A stretch of DNA of 64,000 nucleotides from Candidatus Oscillochloris fontis. GTDB lineage: Bacteria > Chloroflexota > Chloroflexia > Chloroflexales > Chloroflexaceae. Positions 125 through 10,961 of the stretch are shown here, in pieces. The notes under the pieces are model-generated. The model did not search any database. It was not told where the DNA came from and saw only the letters and a list, made by a program, of their open reading frames with translations. Numbering within the stretch: position 1 is the stretch's first letter; each line of letters begins with the position of its first letter. A program made the position numbers and the translations under genes. The stretch is taken from assembly GCF_004138135.1 (NCBI RefSeq), contig NZ_RYFD01000013.1, positions 1 to 64,000 on the forward strand. Reading direction: 5' to 3'.

Positions 125-3100
125 ATGGCAGAGGCACTTATAGCATGGGCACGCTATGGACTTGTGAGCATGATTCAGGTACTACCTGAATCATGCTGGG
201 AGCGGAGTGGACTTGGGGCTTGGCCAGGAGCGCAGGTGTTAGCAAGTCAACCAGGTACACCCAATAGACGTCTACCCTATCGACATCGACGCCTACGGCG
301 TACTCAAAACATAGCAACAAGTGTTTGCTTACCAGTATTCAATCTTCTGCCGAACCATGTTGCACAATGGGCTCAATTTGCTGCGGGTGTCCCTGGAACC
401 ACACTTGCCGCCTATTTCATGCAGTCCAATCCCGATCTGCTTGAAGAGACACAATACGATGATGAGTTAGATGCTGCATCTATTGTGCAACGATTCTTAG
501 GCAGTGCTTCGCCTACGGCTCAGTACTTAAGTGGTCTGCTTGCAGTCGCTGCCCCACTAAATCTCGCTGTGGCTCGCCTAGTGCAGCGTGCATTGTTACC
601 GAATGCAGATCTTACCCATCTAGCAGAAGTCTGGCTAAGTGGTTTGATCCAACGTACCACAGATCTCAGGGCATCTACCACAGACCCAGAAGAGATTGTT
701 TATGAATTCTATCCAGGGGTTCGAGAGCGCCTGCGCTCACTGATTCCATCTGAAGATGTATTCACTGTTATACACGCTGTCTCTGCTTATATTGGTTCGC
801 GTTTAGGGCAATCACATGATTTCCGCACATGGATAAGCGAAGATAAGCCTTTTGCTGAAGATGATCCTCGCCGGCCCTTTGCTATGGTAACGGCTGAAGC
901 GTTGTATGGATTTGGTGGCTCCCACCGTGCATTGGCGGAACGCCTAGCACGGGTAGGTAGTAGTAGCTTTAGCATACATGGATGGTCATCATCCGCACAA
1001 ATATATACCGTACCTTCCATTTCCCTTGTTGAAGCACTTCCTCCTGAGCTACACAGTTATATTGGAACCCTAAAAAAACTTTGTGCTACACCTATTGAAT
1101 TAGATTTAATCATAGATCTTCTGACTGAACATCCTGTACTTGTTGTGGCTCTGCGTATGCTCGCGGGAAAGAATATTACTGGAATTGGTCAAATTCTAGA
1201 AACTCTTGATGCAAATGGTGTTGTTGAACAGATTACCATTATCTCAAATAGTAAAGATTCGATCACAATCCAACTCCCACATCTCCCGCGACAAGTTACT
1301 GCCACCGCTGCCCAAAAGTTGCTCGAAGCAATACCGCTAGAGACACTTGCCCCACTCGCTCCTCTGCCTCCCAGTTCGCGTATCTTCAGCCGTAATCACC
1401 AATTCGTTGGAAAGGAGACCGATTTACTTGCTCTCGCGCGACTGCTCAAGACGGCTGATGCAGCAATTGTCTCAGTGCTGACAATTACTGGTCTTGGTGG
1501 AATCGGTAAAACCCAGTTGGCGATAGAGTTTGCCCATCGCTACGGCCAATTCTTCGCAGGAGGAGTCTTCTTGCTCAGTTTCGCCGACCCCGCTGGTATT
1601 CCCGGTGAGATCGCCGCGTGTGGGATGTCGCTCAACATCTCCGGCTTTGCCGACCTCAAAATTGACGATCAGGTGCAGCGGGTGGTTGCTGCGTGGCAGG
1701 AAGCGTTGCCGCGCCTACTGATCTTCGACAACTGCGAAGACGAGTCGCTGCTGACCCAGTGGCGACCGACGACGGGCGGCTGCCGAGTGGTGGTGACGAG
1801 CCGCAATGCAACCTGGATTCATAGCGCAGCAGTGACGATCTACCCGATGGGCATCCTCAGTCGGACGGAGAGTATCGCCCTGCTGCGTAATCTGCGTGAA
1901 AATCTGAGTGAGGACGAGGCGGACATGATCGCTGAGGTTCTGGGTGATCTGCCGCTGGCGTTACACCTCGCTGGGAATTACCTGCGCACCTACCCCCAGG
2001 AGCAACCAGCAACCTACCTGCAACGACTCGATACAGCCCTGATTAATCATCACTCGCTTATGGGACGTGGCTCCCGCCACTCGCCAACCAATCACGAACT
2101 CCATGTCGCTCGCACCATTGCCATGAGCTATGATCGTCTGGATACTACTCACCCAATAGACGCCGGTGCTCTGTATCTCCTAGCACGGGCAGTATGGTTT
2201 GCACCAGGCGCACCATTTCCTACCGATTTGCTACTGGATAGCCTCGGAGGTGACCGCACAGACGAGGCTGCTCACCTCGACGCCCAAGATGCACTGAACC
2301 GCCTGCTGGCTCTCGGCTTATTGGAACAAGAACACGATACCCTCACCCTACATCGCCTGCTGCATGCTTTCGTGCGCCAAGTCGCGAACGATCCAGCAGC
2401 GCAGGGAGCAATCGAAGATGTGCTGATTGATCACGCAGACCAACTGAATGCAACCGGTTACCCCGCCGCGATGGATACCATCGTCGCCCACTTGCGCTAT
2501 GCCACTGATCACACCGTCGGGCGTAATGATGATCGGGCGGCGAGTCTATGCAATGCCTTGGGCTACCACTTGGATATGCGAGGTGACTACGCCGCCGCTC
2601 GCCCGCTCTATGAGCGCACCCTAGCCATAGCCGAAATCACGCTGGGTTCCAGCCACCCCCAAACTGCTCAAAGTCTGAACAACCTCGCAACACTCTTGCA
2701 GACAGTGGGAGACTATGATGCAGCGCGCCCACTATTGGAACGTGCCCTCGCCATCAGCGAGTCTAGTCTTGGATCAAACCATCCCACTACCGCTCAAAGT
2801 CTGAATAACCTAGCGACACTTTTGCAAACAGTGGGAGACTACGCAGCAGCACGCCCACTATTGGAACGTGCCCTGGCGATTCACGAAGCCGTGCTTGGCC
2901 CCAGTCACCCCCAGACTGCTCAAAGTCTGAATAACCTAGCGACACTCTTGCAAACAGTGGGAGAGTATGCGGAAGCGCACTCACTCTTTCATCAAGCCCT
3001 GTCCATTCGCGAGGCGGTGCTCGGCCCCAGCCATCCCGCTACTGCCATAAGCATCAACAACCTTGCCTTACTGTATTACTCAGAAGGTGACTACGCCATC

Positions 3101-4843
3101 GCCCGCCCGCTCTTCCAGCGTGCTCTTGAGATTCACGAGGCGACTCTTGGCCCGACCCATCCCACTACCGCTACTAGCCTTAACAACTTGGCCGAGATCT
3201 TCCGCGCAATAGGGGACTACGCGGCGGCACGCCCTCTGTTAGAACGCGCTCTGGCGATTCACGAGGCGACCCTTGGTTCAAGGCATCCCCAGACCGCCCA
3301 AAGCTTGAATAACCTAGCGGTACTCCTAGAAGCAGTAGGCGATTATGCAGAAGTTCAGCCACTGTATGATCGCGCTTTGGCAATCAATAAAGCAGTACTA
3401 GGAGCCAATCATCCTGATACTATAACTATTCTTAATAATTTTACCGACTCTTTGCACTCTTCTCTCAATATTGAACTCACGATCACCCGTACTGCTGATG
3501 GGGCAACCACCGCCGCCCTGCGGGCTGAGTTGCCCAACCGCCGCGCCGATCTCGTGCCACCCGAACCGATCCCCCTCGATGCGGTGGCGCTGCGTGCGCT
3601 CACCACCATCCCCGATGCTTACGGAGTTGCCCTGACCGCGATGGTCTTTGCGCCGGCGCTGCGCGAGGGTTGGCAGCGGGTGCGCGGCTTTGCCGACGCG
3701 GGCCAGCCGGTGCGAGTGCGCCTCGTGCTGATGGGCGATGATGGGCTGCACGCTATCCGCTGGGAGTTGTTGCGTGACCCCGTGGATAGTACGCCGCTGG
3801 CCTCCAGTGAACGCACGCCCTTGTCGCGCTTCATGGACACTGCGAGCTTGGCCGAGGTGCAGGCCCCGGCCAAACCCACCCTGCACGCGGTCATTGCGGT
3901 GGCCAACCCGGATCTGCACAAATACCAGATGGCGCAGGTGGATGTTGCCGCTGAGGTGCAACGCGCCCAGCGCGGCCTGGGCGATCTGCGCGCCACGATC
4001 CTGGATGGCCGGGAAGGTCGCCCACTGGCGAGTCTGGCCAGCATCGCCGCCGCATTGCGCGAGGAGGTCAGCATTCTCTACCTCGTGTGCCACGGTACAT
4101 TGACCAAGGGCGAACCGTACCTTTTCCTGGAGATGGATGGTAGCGGGGCGTACCAGCCCACCGCTGGGGCGGCGCTGGTGCAGAAGATCACCGCGCTGAC
4201 CCGCCGCCCGCTGCTGGTGGTGCTCGCTTCGTGCCAGGGGGCGGGCGACACCTATGCGATGTTGGCGGCGCTTGGCCCGCAGTTGGCCCGTGCTGGAGTG
4301 GGCGCGGTGATCGCGATCCAGGGCAATGTGCCGATGACCCTGGTGTCCCAACTGACGCCGCGCCTCTTCACCGAGTTGCGCCGCGACGGCCAGATTGACC
4401 GTGCCCTGGCGGCGGCACGCGCCGCGCTGCACCAGTACCCCGATTGGTGGATGCCGACGCTCTGGATGGCGGTGCGGGACGGGGCGTTGTGGCGGGCGGA
4501 GCTGCCTGTCGCCGCACCCACGCCAAACATCGCTATCGGCACAGTGCAGCAGATCACGATCAGCGGCGGCAGCGTAGGCAGCATCATTGGCAGGAACTCT
4601 GGCAACCCGCCCGCCCCGGCGGGGGCGCAATCCGAAGCCATCACCCACCAGCACACCCTCTTGGCGACCCATCGGCGCACCCTGGGCCACTACCTGCAAC
4701 AGCTTGCGGTCTTCGGTACAGCCTATGCCCCTCCGCATATTATGCACGGTGCCACAGAGGCACGAGCCGGGATCGCCCGCGCTAAAGCGGCGCTGCGCGC
4801 TCTGGGGGTCATGGTTGAAGATCTCCCGGACGACACACCATAA
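125..4843 (+). CDS. SAV_2336-like / NB-ARC / TPR / CHAT multidomain protein (5' end damaged)
   Basis: Large STAND-type protein of 1572 residues. Residues 1 to about 260 look like the C-terminal half of the SAV_2336-like N-terminal domain (LPVFNL near 68, PGVRERLRSL near 200). An NB-ARC NTPase follows, with Walker A GLGGIGKT at 456-463. Seven kinesin-light-chain-type TPRs of 42 residues (nt 2543-3424) share SLNNLATLL and ALAIHEA cores. A CHAT caspase-like protease domain occupies about 1130-1460, with candidate catalytic His1323 (CHG) and Cys1370 (SCQG). A helical tail (HRRTLGHYLQQLA) resembles small effector-associated domains. The family logic is sensing by repeats, NTP-driven oligomerisation and proteolytic output, as in conflict or cell-suicide systems. 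ATG 125 is the first start after an in-frame stop at 65-67 and lacks a clear ribosome site; homologous-looking codons continue upstream, so the N-terminus is probably lost. Confidence 0.85.
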   Translation: MAEALIAWARYGLVSMIQVLPESCWERSGLGAWPGAQVLASQPGTPNRRLPYRHRRLRRTQNIATSVCLPVFNLLPNHVAQWAQFAAGVPGTTLAAYFMQSNPDLLEETQYDDELDAASIVQRFLGSASPTAQYLSGLLAVAAPLNLAVARLVQRALLPNADLTHLAEVWLSGLIQRTTDLRASTTDPEEIVYEFYPGVRERLRSLIPSEDVFTVIHAVSAYIGSRLGQSHDFRTWISEDKPFAEDDPRRPFAMVTAEALYGFGGSHRALAERLARVGSSSFSIHGWSSSAQIYTVPSISLVEALPPELHSYIGTLKKLCATPIELDLIIDLLTEHPVLVVALRMLAGKNITGIGQILETLDANGVVEQITIISNSKDSITIQLPHLPRQVTATAAQKLLEAIPLETLAPLAPLPPSSRIFSRNHQFVGKETDLLALARLLKTADAAIVSVLTITGLGGIGKTQLAIEFAHRYGQFFAGGVFLLSFADPAGIPGEIAACGMSLNISGFADLKIDDQVQRVVAAWQEALPRLLIFDNCEDESLLTQWRPTTGGCRVVVTSRNATWIHSAAVTIYPMGILSRTESIALLRNLRENLSEDEADMIAEVLGDLPLALHLAGNYLRTYPQEQPATYLQRLDTALINHHSLMGRGSRHSPTNHELHVARTIAMSYDRLDTTHPIDAGALYLLARAVWFAPGAPFPTDLLLDSLGGDRTDEAAHLDAQDALNRLLALGLLEQEHDTLTLHRLLHAFVRQVANDPAAQGAIEDVLIDHADQLNATGYPAAMDTIVAHLRYATDHTVGRNDDRAASLCNALGYHLDMRGDYAAARPLYERTLAIAEITLGSSHPQTAQSLNNLATLLQTVGDYDAARPLLERALAISESSLGSNHPTTAQSLNNLATLLQTVGDYAAARPLLERALAIHEAVLGPSHPQTAQSLNNLATLLQTVGEYAEAHSLFHQALSIREAVLGPSHPATAISINNLALLYYSEGDYAIARPLFQRALEIHEATLGPTHPTTATSLNNLAEIFRAIGDYAAARPLLERALAIHEATLGSRHPQTAQSLNNLAVLLEAVGDYAEVQPLYDRALAINKAVLGANHPDTITILNNFTDSLHSSLNIELTITRTADGATTAALRAELPNRRADLVPPEPIPLDAVALRALTTIPDAYGVALTAMVFAPALREGWQRVRGFADAGQPVRVRLVLMGDDGLHAIRWELLRDPVDSTPLASSERTPLSRFMDTASLAEVQAPAKPTLHAVIAVANPDLHKYQMAQVDVAAEVQRAQRGLGDLRATILDGREGRPLASLASIAAALREEVSILYLVCHGTLTKGEPYLFLEMDGSGAYQPTAGAALVQKITALTRRPLLVVLASCQGAGDTYAMLAALGPQLARAGVGAVIAIQGNVPMTLVSQLTPRLFTELRRDGQIDRALAAARAALHQYPDWWMPTLWMAVRDGALWRAELPVAAPTPNIAIGTVQQITISGGSVGSIIGRNSGNPPAPAGAQSEAITHQHTLLATHRRTLGHYLQQLAVFGTAYAPPHIMHGATEARAGIARAKAALRALGVMVEDLPDDTP

Positions 4844-4977
4844 GCCTTCCTTCTGACATCACCGCCGCCTTGTCTTCTACATTGTGATTGCAATAGAACC
4901 CGCCAGATACCTACCCACCCTCCGCTATTATTTGCTATACTGTCCTCGTCAACACAGGCTATCAGAAAACAACCTAT

Positions 4978-6444
4978 ATGAGTACTGATATTCAAGAGAT
5001 GACCGCCGCTGAAGCAGGATTGTCTACCCAACGTCAGCTCGATATTGCCCTTCTGGAGATGGTTAGCCGTGGTGGTGAGTCGGTGGTGCGGGATCTCTAC
5101 TATGCTATCGAGCGTTATATGGGCGGGGCTATACTCTCCCAGCAGGGGCGCGATACGCTGCGTAGCCTGATCAGCCGCGCTGCGGTTGAACGTGGCTATG
5201 TCTATCCCTATGACCCAAGTATTGCTCGGTGGCAAATTACCGAAACCGGCCAAGCCTATGTGGATTCTATCCGCGATGATCTGGCGCGTGATGGTATTGC
5301 GCCGACGAAAGTAACGAGTGGCGAGATTTTGCCCGAAGGGTTTGATACCACAACCTTCGATTTGGGCAATTACCCGATTGATAGTTTGCTTATTCGCTCA
5401 GAGCAGCGCACAGTTTTTGATGTGCTTCGGCGTATGGAGCGGGGCCATTTTATCCTTAACCCCGATTTTCAGCGCGATTTTGTCTGGGATGAGGCGAAAC
5501 AGAGCAAACTTATTGAGTCGACGCTGATGCGTATTCCGCTACCGGTCTTTTATCTGGCCGAAAATGACGAGGGTAAAGTGATTGTCGTTGATGGGCTTCA
5601 ACGCCTCTCCACTCTTCAGCGCTTCTTGAATAATGATCTGGTGCTGCGTGGCTTGGGTACTGATAGTGGTGAGCCGAATGAGTATCGTGAAAGTCAGCGC
5701 CTCAATGGTATGCGCTTCAATGATCTGCCAGCTAAGCTCCAAAATCGGATCGAAGATACGCAACTCATTCTCTATCTGATTGATGCGAAGGTGCCTGAAC
5801 GGGCACGTCTGGATATCTTCGACCGGGTGAATAGTGGTGTACCACTTAGTCGCCAGCAGATGCGTAATAGCCTCTATGTTGGCCCCGCTACCCGCTGGCT
5901 CAAGGAGCAGGCGCAGAGTGCCGACTTCCTGCAAGCTACTGGTGGCAGCCTGAATAGCAGTACGATGCGCGACCGTGAGGCGATCAATCGCTTCTGTGCA
6001 TTTTTGCTCTTTGGTGTTGAGGGCTACCGGCAGAGCAGCAGCGATATGGATGGATTCCTGGCGCGAACACTCAAGATGATCAATACCCAGCCTCCAAGCT
6101 GGATCGCCGATCATCTTACCAAGCCATTCCAACGGAGTATGCGTAACAACTACCAGATCTTTCAGCGCCATGCCTTCCGTAAACATACCGATCCTCATGC
6201 TAACCGCAATGTGATCAATATCGCCCTCTTCGATATCTATTCGGTGCTGATGACTCGCTATAGCGAGCAATTTGTGGCTCAACATACTGAAGAGTTCCAT
6301 CAGCGTTTTTATCTCCTGCTGCGTAACCCCGATTTTCAGGTCGCAATTACCAACGCCACCAATGGCCTGCGCCAAGTTACCGAGCGATTTGAGGCGATCA
6401 AAAACATCCACGCTGACCTTCCAGCGGATATTGAGGTGGCATAA
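4978..6444 (+). CDS. DUF262 (GmrS/ParB-like) protein with N-terminal winged helix
   Basis: 488 residues. About 15-100 is a winged-helix-like segment (LDIALLEMVSRGGESVVRDL, ending WQITETGQAYVDS). From about 145 to 350 is a DUF262 domain: hallmark FILNPDFQRDFVW, then VVDGLQRLSTL at about 203-213 (the usual DGQQR box, with L for the first Q), then IFDRVNSGVPLS. DUF262 is a ParB/sulfiredoxin-fold NTP-using domain found in type IV restriction enzymes such as GmrSD and in other phage-defence proteins. No HNH/DUF1524 nuclease domain is evident in the C-terminus, unlike full GmrSD. The stop TAA shares its last A with the ATG of the next gene, so the two are translationally coupled. A TATACT -10-like box lies at 4936-4941, but no good -35 was found. 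Confidence 0.85.
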   Translation: MSTDIQEMTAAEAGLSTQRQLDIALLEMVSRGGESVVRDLYYAIERYMGGAILSQQGRDTLRSLISRAAVERGYVYPYDPSIARWQITETGQAYVDSIRDDLARDGIAPTKVTSGEILPEGFDTTTFDLGNYPIDSLLIRSEQRTVFDVLRRMERGHFILNPDFQRDFVWDEAKQSKLIESTLMRIPLPVFYLAENDEGKVIVVDGLQRLSTLQRFLNNDLVLRGLGTDSGEPNEYRESQRLNGMRFNDLPAKLQNRIEDTQLILYLIDAKVPERARLDIFDRVNSGVPLSRQQMRNSLYVGPATRWLKEQAQSADFLQATGGSLNSSTMRDREAINRFCAFLLFGVEGYRQSSSDMDGFLARTLKMINTQPPSWIADHLTKPFQRSMRNNYQIFQRHAFRKHTDPHANRNVINIALFDIYSVLMTRYSEQFVAQHTEEFHQRFYLLLRNPDFQVAITNATNGLRQVTERFEAIKNIHADLPADIEVA

Positions 6445-7622
6445 TGCTTCAACAGATCATTCTTAGGCACTTCAAATGTTTTGAGCAACTCCGACTGCCC
6501 CTGGCGCCACTCACCCTGCTGAGTGGACTGAATGCTTCGGGTAAATCAACCGTTATTCAGTCGCTGGCGCTGCTGCATCAGACCATGACCGAGAATCCAG
6601 GTAGCCCAGGGTTGGTACTGAATGGCAAGGATGTCTCGCTCGGCAGCGCTGATGAGATTGTTGATAAGATCACTGGACGCGATAGCTTTACGATTAAGAT
6701 CGAGCATAGTGAAGGCGCGATCCATTGGCGGATGCAGGTTGAGGCTAACGAGTTAATCGCGCCGTTTGCCGCCATTCGGTGGGAGACGGAAGATACTCGC
6801 GGGCAACTTGATCACGAGCATACGCGAACCTTTCTCAGTATGCCTGGGCCGCCAAGCGGGTTGCTCCAAACCCTCCAGGGCCTGACCTATATTTCAGCAG
6901 ATCGTATTGGCCCCCGCGAAACCTACCAAGCCAGTAGCTGCACACAGCAGACAGGCGTTGGCGCACGCGGTGAGTACACGCCATGGTTTATTGATACCTA
7001 TGAAGATCTGGTGATCCCTGGTGCGATGTGTCACCCTAGTGCAACACCAATCCTCAAGCGTCAGGTGGAGGCGTGGCTCGATGCCTTCTTCCCTGGGAGC
7101 GGATTTGAGATTGAACGCCTCCCACGAACCAATCTGTTGGTGATGCGGCTGCGAACTAGTACCGCCACCAACTACCACCGCCCAGTGAATGTGGGCTATG
7201 GCCTGAGCCATGTACTACCGGTGATTACCGCATGCCTCGGAGCCGTTGGCCTTGCCCAACGCGATTCACAGGTTGCTCCGCTCGTGATGATTGAGAACCC
7301 TGAGTTACATCTTCACCCGGCTGGACAATCAGCGATGGGTCTCTTTCTGGCTAGGGCAGCGGCTACTGGTGCGCAGGTGATCATTGAGACCCACAGCGAC
7401 CATATTTTGAACGGTATCCGTAGGGCGGTCAAAGGGGTAGAAGGGGAAGCAATCCTCAGGCCAGATCAGGTGGCAATCCACTTCTTTCAGTCGCGTGATG
7501 GTAGCGGGAAGCGTCCGCAGGTCATCTCTCCAGTTATTGATGCTCAGGGCAATCTCGATTCATGGCCGCCAGACTTCTTCGACCAGTATGAGAAGGATGT
7601 CGGCTCGCTGATTGGATGGTAG
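6444..7622 (+). CDS. OLD-like AAA ATPase, DUF3696 family
   Basis: 392-residue SMC/OLD-type ATPase. The N-terminus IILRHFKCFEQLRLPLAPLT leads into Walker A GLNASGKS at 28-35. The ABC-type Walker B region is MIENPELHLHP near 282-292, followed by the switch-like THSDHILNGIR. The C-terminus (QVAIHFFQ, LDSWPPDFFDQY) is the DUF3696 signature seen in predicted AAA ATPases of defence islands. No TOPRIM nuclease follows, so it differs from classical OLD nucleases. It is the second gene of a three-gene operon; its start overlaps the DUF262 stop and its end abuts or overlaps the third gene. Inference: an NTP-driven sensor or regulator for the DUF262 partner. Confidence 0.85.
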   Translation: MLQQIILRHFKCFEQLRLPLAPLTLLSGLNASGKSTVIQSLALLHQTMTENPGSPGLVLNGKDVSLGSADEIVDKITGRDSFTIKIEHSEGAIHWRMQVEANELIAPFAAIRWETEDTRGQLDHEHTRTFLSMPGPPSGLLQTLQGLTYISADRIGPRETYQASSCTQQTGVGARGEYTPWFIDTYEDLVIPGAMCHPSATPILKRQVEAWLDAFFPGSGFEIERLPRTNLLVMRLRTSTATNYHRPVNVGYGLSHVLPVITACLGAVGLAQRDSQVAPLVMIENPELHLHPAGQSAMGLFLARAAATGAQVIIETHSDHILNGIRRAVKGVEGEAILRPDQVAIHFFQSRDGSGKRPQVISPVIDAQGNLDSWPPDFFDQYEKDVGSLIGW

Positions 7623-7629
7623 GTACACT

Positions 7630-8592
7630 GTGGATCTCTTCGTCAATGATCTCTCGCTCCACGGTCAGTTCGGTGATTATCAAGCATTTCGGCGCTCACT
7701 CGATGACGTACTCGCCTGCCGCACCTGCGCCGCCAATTACCAACGAACGTTGCGTGTTCCACGCTCGATCATTGAGCGTCAAGTCACGCCCCAAGCAGAC
7801 TTTCGCCAAGCAGTGCAAGCGAATCGTGATCGCAATTTCGTTATGCTGATTATGGAGTGGCTTAATAAGCGTGGGCCATTTGTCGAAGATGATCTCTTAC
7901 GCAACCCTAATGAATACCTTGCCCTGAGCGATGATACGCTTGTCACCGATGAGGCTATTGGTGAGGCAGCAACCCGCCATTTTCAAGGCTTATCTGCCGG
8001 GTTGATCAGTTTTGCACCTTCAACATACCAGCATACACCAATCAGTGTACACTGGCACCATGATGATGGTAGTGTGGAGAGTTGCGCATTACCCAATTGT
8101 TGCGAGCCAGAACAACTCCAATGTCTGCTCGAATCCTACCGTCAGCCTCCGGAAAGTTGGAATGATTTTATTGCCCAACTCCCCGGACGTTTTCCCCACC
8201 TCACGTTTCTTCCTGGATTAGAAGATTACCTCAAAGGAACCACGTTCTCTCCGTACTTGGTGGAGCGAAGTTTTGTGCTGCTCGATGTGCTGAATCGGCT
8301 CAAAACCTGCTTTGATGCAGAGGGCCAGCGTACTGCCGCCGGAGAGGAGTTGATAGATAATTTCTTTCGACGTGATAAGGCGCTCTTCTCCGACTCATCA
8401 GATTCGGAGAAGAATGATCCCGTTTTCCGTAACGCAATGACCTTCAAAGACCCAGATGGTCATGAGTTGATCTGTTTCTGGCATGGCAAGGTGAAACGAC
8501 CGATACAATTTCGTATCCACTTCAGTTATCCAATTCAGAGCCATACGCCCTTGTATGTTGCCTACATCGGCGAAAAGCTGACCAAGAAGTAG
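7630..8592 (+). CDS. Unknown third gene of the DUF262-ATPase operon
   Basis: About 320 residues, family not recognised. GTG 7630 is preferred because GGTAGG lies just upstream; TTG 7612, overlapping the ATPase stop, is the alternative. The N-terminus (VDLFVNDLSLHGQF) and the C-terminal block (LICFWHGKVKRPIQFRIHF, then PLYVAYIGEKLTKK) look like a compact conserved fold. A Cys pair (CRTC) occurs near residue 30 and another (NCCEP) near 150. Codons 8375-8444 (KALFSDSSDSEKND) coincide with a palindromic element repeated in the next gene, which suggests an in-frame insertion. The coupling makes a shared function with the two upstream genes likely; the activity is unknown. Confidence 0.75.
   Translation: MDLFVNDLSLHGQFGDYQAFRRSLDDVLACRTCAANYQRTLRVPRSIIERQVTPQADFRQAVQANRDRNFVMLIMEWLNKRGPFVEDDLLRNPNEYLALSDDTLVTDEAIGEAATRHFQGLSAGLISFAPSTYQHTPISVHWHHDDGSVESCALPNCCEPEQLQCLLESYRQPPESWNDFIAQLPGRFPHLTFLPGLEDYLKGTTFSPYLVERSFVLLDVLNRLKTCFDAEGQRTAAGEELIDNFFRRDKALFSDSSDSEKNDPVFRNAMTFKDPDGHELICFWHGKVKRPIQFRIHFSYPIQSHTPLYVAYIGEKLTKK
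8375..8444. repeat. Protein-embedded palindromic element, copy A
   Basis: About 70 bp nearly identical to 9155-9224. Its core is a perfect 9-bp stem, CTTCTCCGA (8385-8393) with TCGGAGAAG (8404-8412), around a 10-nt loop. It lies in frame within the third defence-operon gene and encodes ALFSDSSDSEKN. Confidence 0.8.
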
Positions 8593-8620
8593 GCTAAAGG
8601 TTGCAGCACGTGTAAATTTT

Positions 8621-8692
8621 GGAAACATCCGCAAGACGGAGGAGGGGCCGGTGGTGAGTGATGTGCGCGAGCCGCTCGTGGAATATCTTTAA
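8621..8692 (+). pseudogene. Fragment of a gvpH-like gene
   Basis: About 70 bp matches the inside of the intact gvpH at 10680-10749 with only a few mismatches and a 1-bp insertion near 8682. The shared stretch spans the codons for NIRKTEEGPVVSDVREP. It has no start and ends by frameshift at TAA (8690-8692). It is a relic of a duplication or of a displaced second gvpH copy. Confidence 0.75.
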
Positions 8693-8784: not shown

Positions 8785-9219
8785 ATGACTCACTCAGGGT
8801 ATACTTTATTTAATCTGGAGGAAGAAGCGAGAAGTGGCCGTAAATGGTTTGTCGGTTCATTCTTGCCCGAAACCCATGGAGCATATAGTTCGAATATCGA
8901 GGTCGGTTATCTACATCTTCAACACGTAGATAGTGCAGATCAGTACCACTTACATGTAAAGACTGAAGAATATTATCTGGTACTAAGTGGGTATATGAAA
9001 ATTCAAATTGATACTGAAATCATAGATGTTTCACCTGGACATCTCTTGTTGGTCCGACCACATATACCGCATATCATTCTAGAAGTTATCGCAGATACTC
9101 GAATACTCCTGCTTAAAGCACCGTCAAATCCTCAGGATAAGGTTATTGTTGCTCATAAAGCGCTCTTCTCCGACTCATCAGATTCGGAGAAGAACGCTCC
9201 CGATTTCCCAACGCAATGA
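8785..9219 (+). CDS. Small single-domain cupin protein
   Basis: 144 residues. Cupin motif 1 is YHLHVKTEEYYLVLSG (metal-type His/His-x-Glu pattern) and motif 2 includes PGHLLLVRPHIPH, so a metal-binding beta-barrel is likely; substrate unknown. A strong AGGAGGA lies 5-11 nt before ATG 8785. The last 20 residues (from KALFSDSSDSEKN to the stop) come from the palindromic element also present in the preceding gene, so the native C-terminus has been replaced or extended. AT-richer codons than the neighbours suggest a different origin. Confidence 0.75.
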   Translation: MTHSGYTLFNLEEEARSGRKWFVGSFLPETHGAYSSNIEVGYLHLQHVDSADQYHLHVKTEEYYLVLSGYMKIQIDTEIIDVSPGHLLLVRPHIPHIILEVIADTRILLLKAPSNPQDKVIVAHKALFSDSSDSEKNAPDFPTQ

Positions 9220-9224
9220 CCTTT
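9155..9224. repeat. Protein-embedded palindromic element, copy B
   Basis: Second copy of the element at 8375-8444, with the same 9-bp stem at 9165-9173 and 9184-9192. It forms the 3' end of the cupin ORF. A 1-nt deletion relative to copy A changes the frame after SEKNAPDF. Confidence 0.8.
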
Positions 9225-10162: not shown

Positions 10163-10424
10163 GGTGCAGTGTATCTTTCGTGTCTTTGAACTATTCGATG
10201 TAGGTTGTATGTGTAGTTGTACCATCCACTATTTCAGAAGTTGTGAAGATGGAATGTAGAAGATCTTCGGGGGCGGCTTGCCGCCCCGAACCCCCACCGG
10301 AGGTAAATTTGCACATGCCCTGCAAACCTCCACCAGAGATCATGCGAACTCGCCCCCAATACCGTACAATGAAGTGAGCAACGCACGCTGCGGTGTGTAT
10401 TTCATCCATCGGAGGAACCATACC
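10163..10424. other. Divergent intergenic region between the DUF4405 gene and gvpH
   Basis: 262 bp. It holds a GGGGCGGC/GCCGCCCC hairpin at 10268-10287 and presumably both promoters; no confident -35/-10 pair was found. GGAGG at 10411-10415 is the gvpH ribosome site. Confidence 0.5.
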
Positions 10425-10961
10425 ATGACTGACAAAAAAGATGAGCAAGAGCCGACGAAGGCGAATTTTGGCCTCGATCTTGGCTTGGGCGGGATCTTTA
10501 AGAATCTGGGTGATATGCTCAATGTGCTCGCCGATCTGACCGATAAGGCCCAAGCGACCCAGGGTGAGGTCAGTCGTTCGGCGGAGTTTCAGGTGAAGGG
10601 CATGGGCGATCAAGCACGCGGTGTGTATGGCTTCACCATCCGCAGTGCTATCGGTGGCCCGCCACGTATTCAGCCTTTCGGCAACATCCGCAAGACGGAA
10701 GAGGGGCCGGTGGTGAGTGATGTGCGCGAGCCACTGGTGGATATCTTCGATGAGGGGGCGGAGATCCTCATTGTTGCTGAGTTGCCAGGGGTGAATGCCG
10801 CCCAGATCCAGGTTGATCTGAATGATGATATCCTCAGTATCACCACGTCTGGCGAGCGCCGCTATACCAAGGAGATTTTGCTCTCGGCAGCGGTGCATCC
10901 CGATTCGCTCCAGCAGACCTATACCAATGGGATTCTGGAGTTACGGTTGACCAAGGCGTAG
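10425..10961 (+). CDS. gvpH: GvpH-like Hsp20-family gas vesicle protein
   Basis: 178 residues from ATG 10425, chosen for the GGAGG 10 nt upstream over a longer upstream ORF. The N-terminal half is Gly-rich (LDLGLGGIFKNLGDML). The C-terminal half is an alpha-crystallin-type domain: VVSDVREPLVDIFDEGAEIL, VAELPGVNAAQIQVDL, NGILELRL. The VREPLVD(I/V)FDEG opening is typical of GvpH rather than general Hsp20. GvpH assists gas vesicle assembly by chaperoning structural proteins. No other gvp gene lies in the window, so a minor Hsp20 role is also possible. The stop codon TAG lies inside the palindromic repeat that separates it from cdc48, and a relic of the same gene lies at 8621-8692. Confidence 0.75.
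   Translation: MTDKKDEQEPTKANFGLDLGLGGIFKNLGDMLNVLADLTDKAQATQGEVSRSAEFQVKGMGDQARGVYGFTIRSAIGGPPRIQPFGNIRKTEEGPVVSDVREPLVDIFDEGAEILIVAELPGVNAAQIQVDLNDDILSITTSGERRYTKEILLSAAVHPDSLQQTYTNGILELRLTKA

What the first reader, a model, noticed from the sequence alone, without database searches (positions are those of the whole stretch)
4978..8592. Candidate three-gene defence system: DUF262 protein, OLD-like/DUF3696 ATPase, unknown protein
The genes overlap or abut (TAATG at 6442-6446; third gene starts within 8 nt of the second stop). DUF262 and OLD-like ATPases are both recurrent phage-defence components, but here the DUF262 protein has a winged helix and no HNH nuclease, and the ATPase has no TOPRIM domain. 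If a nuclease exists it should be in the third, unrecognised protein, whose C-terminus holds a conserved-looking HGKV...RIHF...YIGEKL block.
Basis: partly seen in the sequence, partly recalled or inferred. Interest (0 to 1): 0.7.

Follow-up and report, generated by a model that had tools for sequence, protein, structure and literature searches.

The report
Menshen phage-defence operon, winged-helix NsnA
The three genes are a member of an already named bacterial anti-phage system (Menshen). Its third protein ends in a module that looks distantly like RNA-cutting toxins and recurs in other candidate defence proteins, and its first protein carries an extra DNA-binding-type domain.

Summary
All three genes match the named Menshen system over most of their length: NsnA (E 2e-116), NsnB (4e-104), NsnC (2e-100). 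The ordered A-B-C trio is complete in 60 of 66 related loci from many phyla. So this is a new member of a known system.

Three things go beyond the name. (1) NsnA has an extra N-terminal winged helix (predicted fold Z about 10-11). The same module is fused to McrB-like AAA proteins and a restriction-endonuclease-like protein in the same bacterial family. (2) NsnB has intact ABC-ATPase motifs and no TOPRIM. Its predicted fold is closest to RelE/YoeB/YafQ/HigB toxins (Z 5.0-5.5, suggestive only), without sequence support. It recurs in HEC-07 candidate defence proteins and in an NsnB-like two-gene unit without NsnA.

Best guess: an ATPase-gated abortive system with the NsnC module as RNA-acting effector. 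This is inferred; the rival (NsnA effector, NsnC recognition) is nearly as likely.

The parts
4978..6444 (+). nsnA: DUF262 (GmrSD_N) protein, 488 aa, Menshen NsnA with an N-terminal extension
   Evidence: PADLOC NsnA PDLC03877 E 2.4e-116 over residues 133-479; Pfam GmrSD_N 9.2e-26, no DUF1524
5017..5298 (+). N-terminal winged-helix module of NsnA (about residues 14-107), absent from the NsnA profile
   Evidence: AF2 model m8c8b17bdc2f9, VIA-align Z 9-11 to PadR/MarR/RosR winged helices; homologous module in other defence-type proteins
5419..5877 (+). DUF262/GmrSD_N ParB-like NTPase core of NsnA, with DGxQR-type motif (DGLQR, residues 205-209)
   Evidence: Pfam residues 148-300; D205, G206, Q208, R209 invariant in a 29-sequence alignment
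6444..7622 (+). nsnB: ABC-type ATPase with DUF3696, no TOPRIM
   Evidence: PADLOC NsnB PDLC03878 E 4e-104; Pfam AAA_15, AAA_21, DUF3696; Walker A, Walker B (ENPELHLHP) and ETHSDH motif residues at 97% or more in 56 sequences
7630..8592 (+). nsnC: 320 aa, GTG start
   Evidence: PADLOC NsnC PDLC03896 E 1.8e-100, full length; AF2 model m659f421f9cc1, pLDDT 93
8185..8589 (+).
   Evidence: VIA-align top rows YafQ Z 5.5, YoeB/ParE 5.4, RelE 5.0, HigB1 4.6; module recurs in HEC-07 proteins and other NsnC classes

Best explanation
The operon is a Menshen anti-phage system (nsnA-nsnB-nsnC) of a Chloroflexaceae bacterium. This part is shown by sequence and is close to certain. Proposed mechanism (inferred): NsnB, a TOPRIM-less ABC ATPase of the same broad kind as PARIS AriA and Septu PtuA, is the phage-sensing scaffold. 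NsnA is a DUF262 NTP switch that, in this lineage, contacts DNA through its added winged helix and licenses the complex. NsnC is a two-part protein whose C-terminal RelE-like module is the effector, most likely an RNA-cleaving (translation-stopping) toxin, released or switched on when NsnB senses infection, so that the cell shuts down before phage release. Shown: gene identity, conserved order, motif sets, the winged helix (by prediction), and recurrence of the NsnC module in other defence-type proteins. Inferred: the sensing role, the effector assignment, and RNA as target.
For: All three proteins match Menshen models over most of their length. The trio is complete in 60 of 66 loci with genes overlapping or within a few bases in nearly all. 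NsnA has no recognised nuclease domain and NsnB no TOPRIM, so a catalytic effector is most easily placed in NsnC. Residues 189-320 of NsnC lie in a high-confidence model whose seven best-scoring solved structures are all RelE/ParE-superfamily toxins, with 79-87 residues aligned to toxins 86-121 long. Conserved basic and aromatic residues fall at i, i+2 positions on consecutive predicted strands (H285/K287, R295/H297), then Y312 and K316, as expected of one face of a sheet. The module is portable: it occurs in NsnC classes with different N-terminal halves, at the C-terminus of HEC-07 candidate defence proteins (L170, L171, L172), and in L173 next to an NsnB-like ATPase with no NsnA gene found nearby.
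Against: Z of 5 is within the range the tool warns may mean only a common arrangement; Foldseek alone found no match with E below 0.001. Profile-profile comparison with ParE-family toxins was not significant, and no RelE-superfamily Pfam model is among the families listed for 49 NsnC members. PADLOC holds many separate NsnC models (the hit lists here name over 20), while every NsnA and NsnB match here was to one model each; such diversity fits a recognition subunit as well as an effector. A review states that mutating or deleting the DUF262 gene abolishes Menshen protection (PMC10952713), so NsnA is not dispensable where tested.
Confidence: 0.42

Rival explanations
1. Menshen in which NsnA is the effector (a DNA-acting nuclease or DNA-binding blocker), NsnB is the ATPase amplifier, and NsnC, the most diverse subunit, is the specificity factor that recognises a phage component.
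For: NsnC is split into many PADLOC models, as expected for a recognition subunit. NsnA carries the variable N-terminal domain. Deleting or mutating the DUF262 gene abolishes defence (PMC10952713). A 2025 paper (Li et al., Nucleic Acids Res. gkaf357, PMC12065111; title in a reference list) describes 'domain polymorphism' of Menshen; it is not held here. From unverified memory it assigns recognition to NsnC and DNA degradation to NsnA.
Against: No nuclease domain was found in this NsnA by Pfam or NCBIfam, and the extra domain is a winged helix, not a nuclease. An NsnB-like ATPase plus NsnC-module pair exists with no NsnA gene found nearby (L173).
Confidence: 0.4
2. The NsnC C-terminal module has a RelE-like shape but is a non-catalytic binding module (for RNA, ribosome or a partner protein) that positions NsnC; the effector is elsewhere.
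For: Only fold-level similarity; a shared fold shows no function. At R295 and H297 the residue changes to S or Y in some non-Menshen or other-class copies.
Against: H285, G314 and a basic residue at 316 persist even in HEC-07 copies, which is more than a general binding surface usually keeps.
Confidence: 0.15
3. Not a Menshen but a separate, new three-gene system that only shares distant domains with it.
For: NsnA has about 130 residues the Menshen NsnA profile lacks.
Against: Hits of E 1e-100 or better to all three components in the right order, NsnC full length; most relatives without the extension are 49-59% identical in NsnA.
Confidence: 0.02

Closest known systems
Menshen (NsnA, NsnB, NsnC; Millman et al. 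2022)
   Same: All three proteins, gene order and tight coupling
   Different: NsnA has an added N-terminal winged helix; NsnB here has no TOPRIM, whereas a review links an OLD-type TOPRIM or predicted OLD nuclease to one Menshen component (PMC10952713)
GmrSD / BrxU / SspE (DUF262 + DUF1524)
   Same: DUF262 NTPase core with DGxQR-type motif; the DUF262 protein of entry 7p9k is the only PDB match (E 0.01)
   Different: No DUF1524 HNH domain; works in a trio with an ABC ATPase
PARIS (AriA/AriB), Septu PtuA, OLD/Gabija GajA
   Same: NsnB is an ABC ATPase with E 4.6e-23 to an AriA model and about 1e-14 to 1e-12 to PtuA, Old and GajA
   Different: No TOPRIM; partners are DUF262 and NsnC proteins
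RelE/ParE/YoeB/YafQ/HigB toxin superfamily
   Same: Predicted fold of NsnC residues 189-320, Z 4.4-5.5
   Different: No sequence similarity detected; fused to a different N-terminal domain; no antitoxin gene seen
HEC-07 candidate defence proteins (PADLOC)
   Same: Share the NsnC-type C-terminal module
   Different: Different N-terminal half (with coiled-coil-type regions), found without the trio

Membership tests
Menshen | DUF262 protein NsnA | tested here: met
   PDLC03877 E 2.4e-116
Menshen | ATPase NsnB | tested here: met
   PDLC03878 E 4e-104
Menshen | NsnC | tested here: met
   PDLC03896 E 1.8e-100, profile positions 2-319 of 319
Menshen | Adjacent genes in order A-B-C | tested here: met
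   Window coordinates; 60 of 66 related loci
Menshen | Protection against phages, lost when a gene is removed | not testable with these tools
   Needs an infection assay; reported for the DUF262 gene of a tested Menshen (PMC10952713)
GmrSD type IV restriction | DUF262 domain | tested here: met
   Pfam GmrSD_N 9.2e-26
GmrSD type IV restriction | DUF1524 HNH nuclease domain | tested here: not met
   No DUF1524 match in any of the three proteins
OLD / Gabija GajA | C-terminal OLD-type TOPRIM domain | tested here: not met
   No TOPRIM family match in NsnB at E up to 1; DUF3696 at the C-terminus instead
PARIS | AriB TOPRIM nuclease partner | tested here: not met
   Partners are NsnA and NsnC; no AriB hit among their matches
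RelE/ParE toxin superfamily (NsnC C-terminal module) | RelE fold | tested here: inconclusive
   Top VIA rows Z 5.0-5.5, rmsd 3.3-3.6, 84-87 residues; Foldseek E not significant
RelE/ParE toxin superfamily (NsnC C-terminal module) | Sequence-profile similarity | tested here: inconclusive
   hhalign against a ParE alignment not significant; no RelE-superfamily Pfam family listed for 49 members
RelE/ParE toxin superfamily (NsnC C-terminal module) | RNA cleavage | not testable with these tools
   Needs biochemistry

The most novel reading that the evidence does not exclude
The C-terminal module of NsnC is a RelE-fold ribonuclease shared by Menshen, HEC-07 and NsnB-only relatives. Menshen would then be an ATPase-gated RNA-targeting abortive system rather than a DNA-degrading one. 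In addition, Chloroflexaceae shuffle one winged-helix cassette onto Menshen NsnA, McrB-like and endonuclease-like proteins as a shared DNA-recognition part.
Probability: 0.28. Interest if true: 0.6.

Novelty: new member of a known kind. Interest (0 to 1): 0.33.

Why it matters
It settles the three 'unknown' genes as Menshen and gives the NsnC subunit, which matches no Pfam family, a concrete and testable candidate active site (H285, K287, R295, H297, Y312, K316). If the RelE-like reading holds, one module would link several defence families and move the Menshen effector from DNA to RNA. The winged-helix cassette shared by Menshen, McrB-like and endonuclease-like proteins suggests a common way of recognising DNA in this bacterial family.

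Tried and rejected
Foldseek of the NsnC model against PDB and viral models gave no significant match. The weak VIA matches of NsnC residues 1-171 are mixed proteins at Z 4.3 or less and were not used. hhalign of the NsnC C-terminal module against a ParE alignment built from relatives was not significant. PDB sequence searches with NsnC and with the winged-helix alignment found nothing credible. Pfam gave only a sub-threshold hint of Mrr_N for the winged helix (two of nine members, best E 0.07). The first genome-contig scan with the single NsnC sequence found nothing; the alignment-based scan found 66 loci. The NAR 2025 Menshen paper is not held. The idea that the repeat in nsnC (8375-8444) is a mobile palindrome inserted in the gene was dropped: homologues have similar residues there, so the copy in the cupin gene is the derived one.

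Full report
Observation. TAATG at 6442-6446 couples the first two. The third has a TTG-start ORF at 7612 in the mechanical list, but the NsnC profile begins at GTG 7630, so the protein is 320 aa.

Identity. Against PADLOC-DB the three proteins match NsnA (2.4e-116), NsnB (4e-104) and NsnC (1.8e-100) of the Menshen system. A review in the library (PMC10952713) confirms that Menshen has a DUF262 gene without DUF1524 and that mutating or deleting the DUF262 gene abolishes protection.

Conservation. A scan of one genome per species with an NsnC alignment gave 66 loci from Chloroflexota, Pseudomonadota, Planctomycetota, Nitrospirota and others. NsnA, NsnB and NsnC are all present in order in 60. 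The other six are cut by contig ends (L052, L059, L087, L092) or are fragments (L102, L103). In nearly all, the A/B and B/C boundaries overlap or lie within a few bases. In Chloroflexota, close NsnC relatives are rare and patchy (6 of 251 genomes), as expected of a mobile defence system. The window's own genome holds a second Menshen-type operon elsewhere (L018) with another NsnC class, PDLC03898.

NsnA. Pfam finds only GmrSD_N, residues 148-300. The first 130 or so residues lie outside the NsnA profile. Among the 60 complete loci only the two Chloroflexaceae-type relatives (L038, L039) match this extension; within the bacterial family it is also on the NsnA of two operons with another NsnC class (L024, L025). 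A model built on 29 sequences (mean pLDDT 84; 76-89 over most of residues 20-100) gives three helices, a hairpin and a further helix. Its nearest solved structures are winged-helix regulators, Z 9-11. The same domain, 33-46% identical, is part of a 263-aa restriction-endonuclease-like protein (L028) and of McrB-like AAA proteins (L029, L030, L031) of the same family; those names rest on reading the sequences, not on a family search. In a sample of 301 Chloroflexota genomes it appears in six, four of them in this family. A lineage-specific recognition cassette moved between defence proteins is the simplest reading (inference).

NsnB. Walker A residues (G31, N33, G36, K37, S38 in alignment numbering), the ENPELHLHP Walker B region and ETHSDH are conserved at 97% or more in 56 sequences. 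DUF3696 is at the C-terminus and no TOPRIM is found.

NsnC. No Pfam family matches with confidence. The model from 49 sequences is confident, pLDDT 93. Foldseek finds nothing significant. VIA-align, as a second look, places residues 189-320 on YafQ (Z 5.5, rmsd 3.3, 87 residues aligned, chain of 91), YoeB/ParE (5.4), RelE (5.0), HigB1 (4.6) and further ParE-type toxins, all at the top of the list. The tool warns that Z below 8 may be only a common arrangement, and profile-profile comparison gives no support, so RelE-like is suggestive, not established. Three further facts make the module interesting. Its motif residues (H285, R295, H297, Y312, G314, K316) stay at 97% or more among 60 NsnC. H285, G314 and a basic residue at 316 also persist in the second NsnC class and in HEC-07 proteins. 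And in L173 an NsnB-like ATPase (NsnB model 1.5e-77) overlaps by 4 bases a gene carrying this module, with no NsnA gene found nearby.

Mechanism. I favour, at about 0.42 against 0.40 for the main rival, NsnB as the ATP-driven sensor hub, NsnA as an NTP-dependent licensing subunit with DNA contact, and the NsnC C-terminal module as the RNA-acting effector. The rival reverses the roles of NsnA and NsnC and may be the published view; that paper (gkaf357) could not be read.

Novelty. New member of a known kind, with a lineage-specific winged-helix extension. The NsnC module shared with HEC-07 is the part most worth a specialist's time.

Noticed in passing
window 8375-8444 and 9155-9223: A 70-nt piece of nsnC (about 91% identical) is repeated at the 3' end of the downstream cupin-domain gene (8785-9219), giving that protein a captured NsnC-like tail (KALFSDSSDSEKNAPDFPTQ). 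Homologues show the nsnC copy is the original.
   Followed up: partly
window 8617-8689 and 10676-10747: A fragment about 92% identical to part of the downstream Hsp20-like gene (ORF 10278-10961) lies just after nsnC, another duplication scar at the operon's 3' edge.
   Followed up: partly
window 125-4843: A 1572-aa protein with a weak NB-ARC-like match, many TPR repeats and a CHAT domain ends 134 nt upstream of nsnA on the same strand; it could be a neighbouring defence or cell-death gene.
   Followed up: no
L018 (G000:C107), 4140-7548: Second Menshen-type operon in the same genome: NsnA-like, NsnB-like and an NsnC of another class (PDLC03898); followed by a 417-aa protein with no PADLOC match whose relative also follows the operon in L026.
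   Followed up: partly
L020 2054-3640 and L022 4022-5278: NsnA genes without nsnB or nsnC beside them; in L022 most of the winged helix is missing from the same reading frame, which suggests decay or turnover of the system.
   Followed up: partly
L170, L171, L172: HEC-07-type candidate defence proteins (526-743 aa) that end in the same module as NsnC.
   Followed up: partly
L028 3897-4685; L029 1332-5012; L030 1560-3434; L031 2434-5598: Endonuclease-like and McrB-like AAA proteins carrying the winged-helix module found on NsnA.
   Followed up: partly
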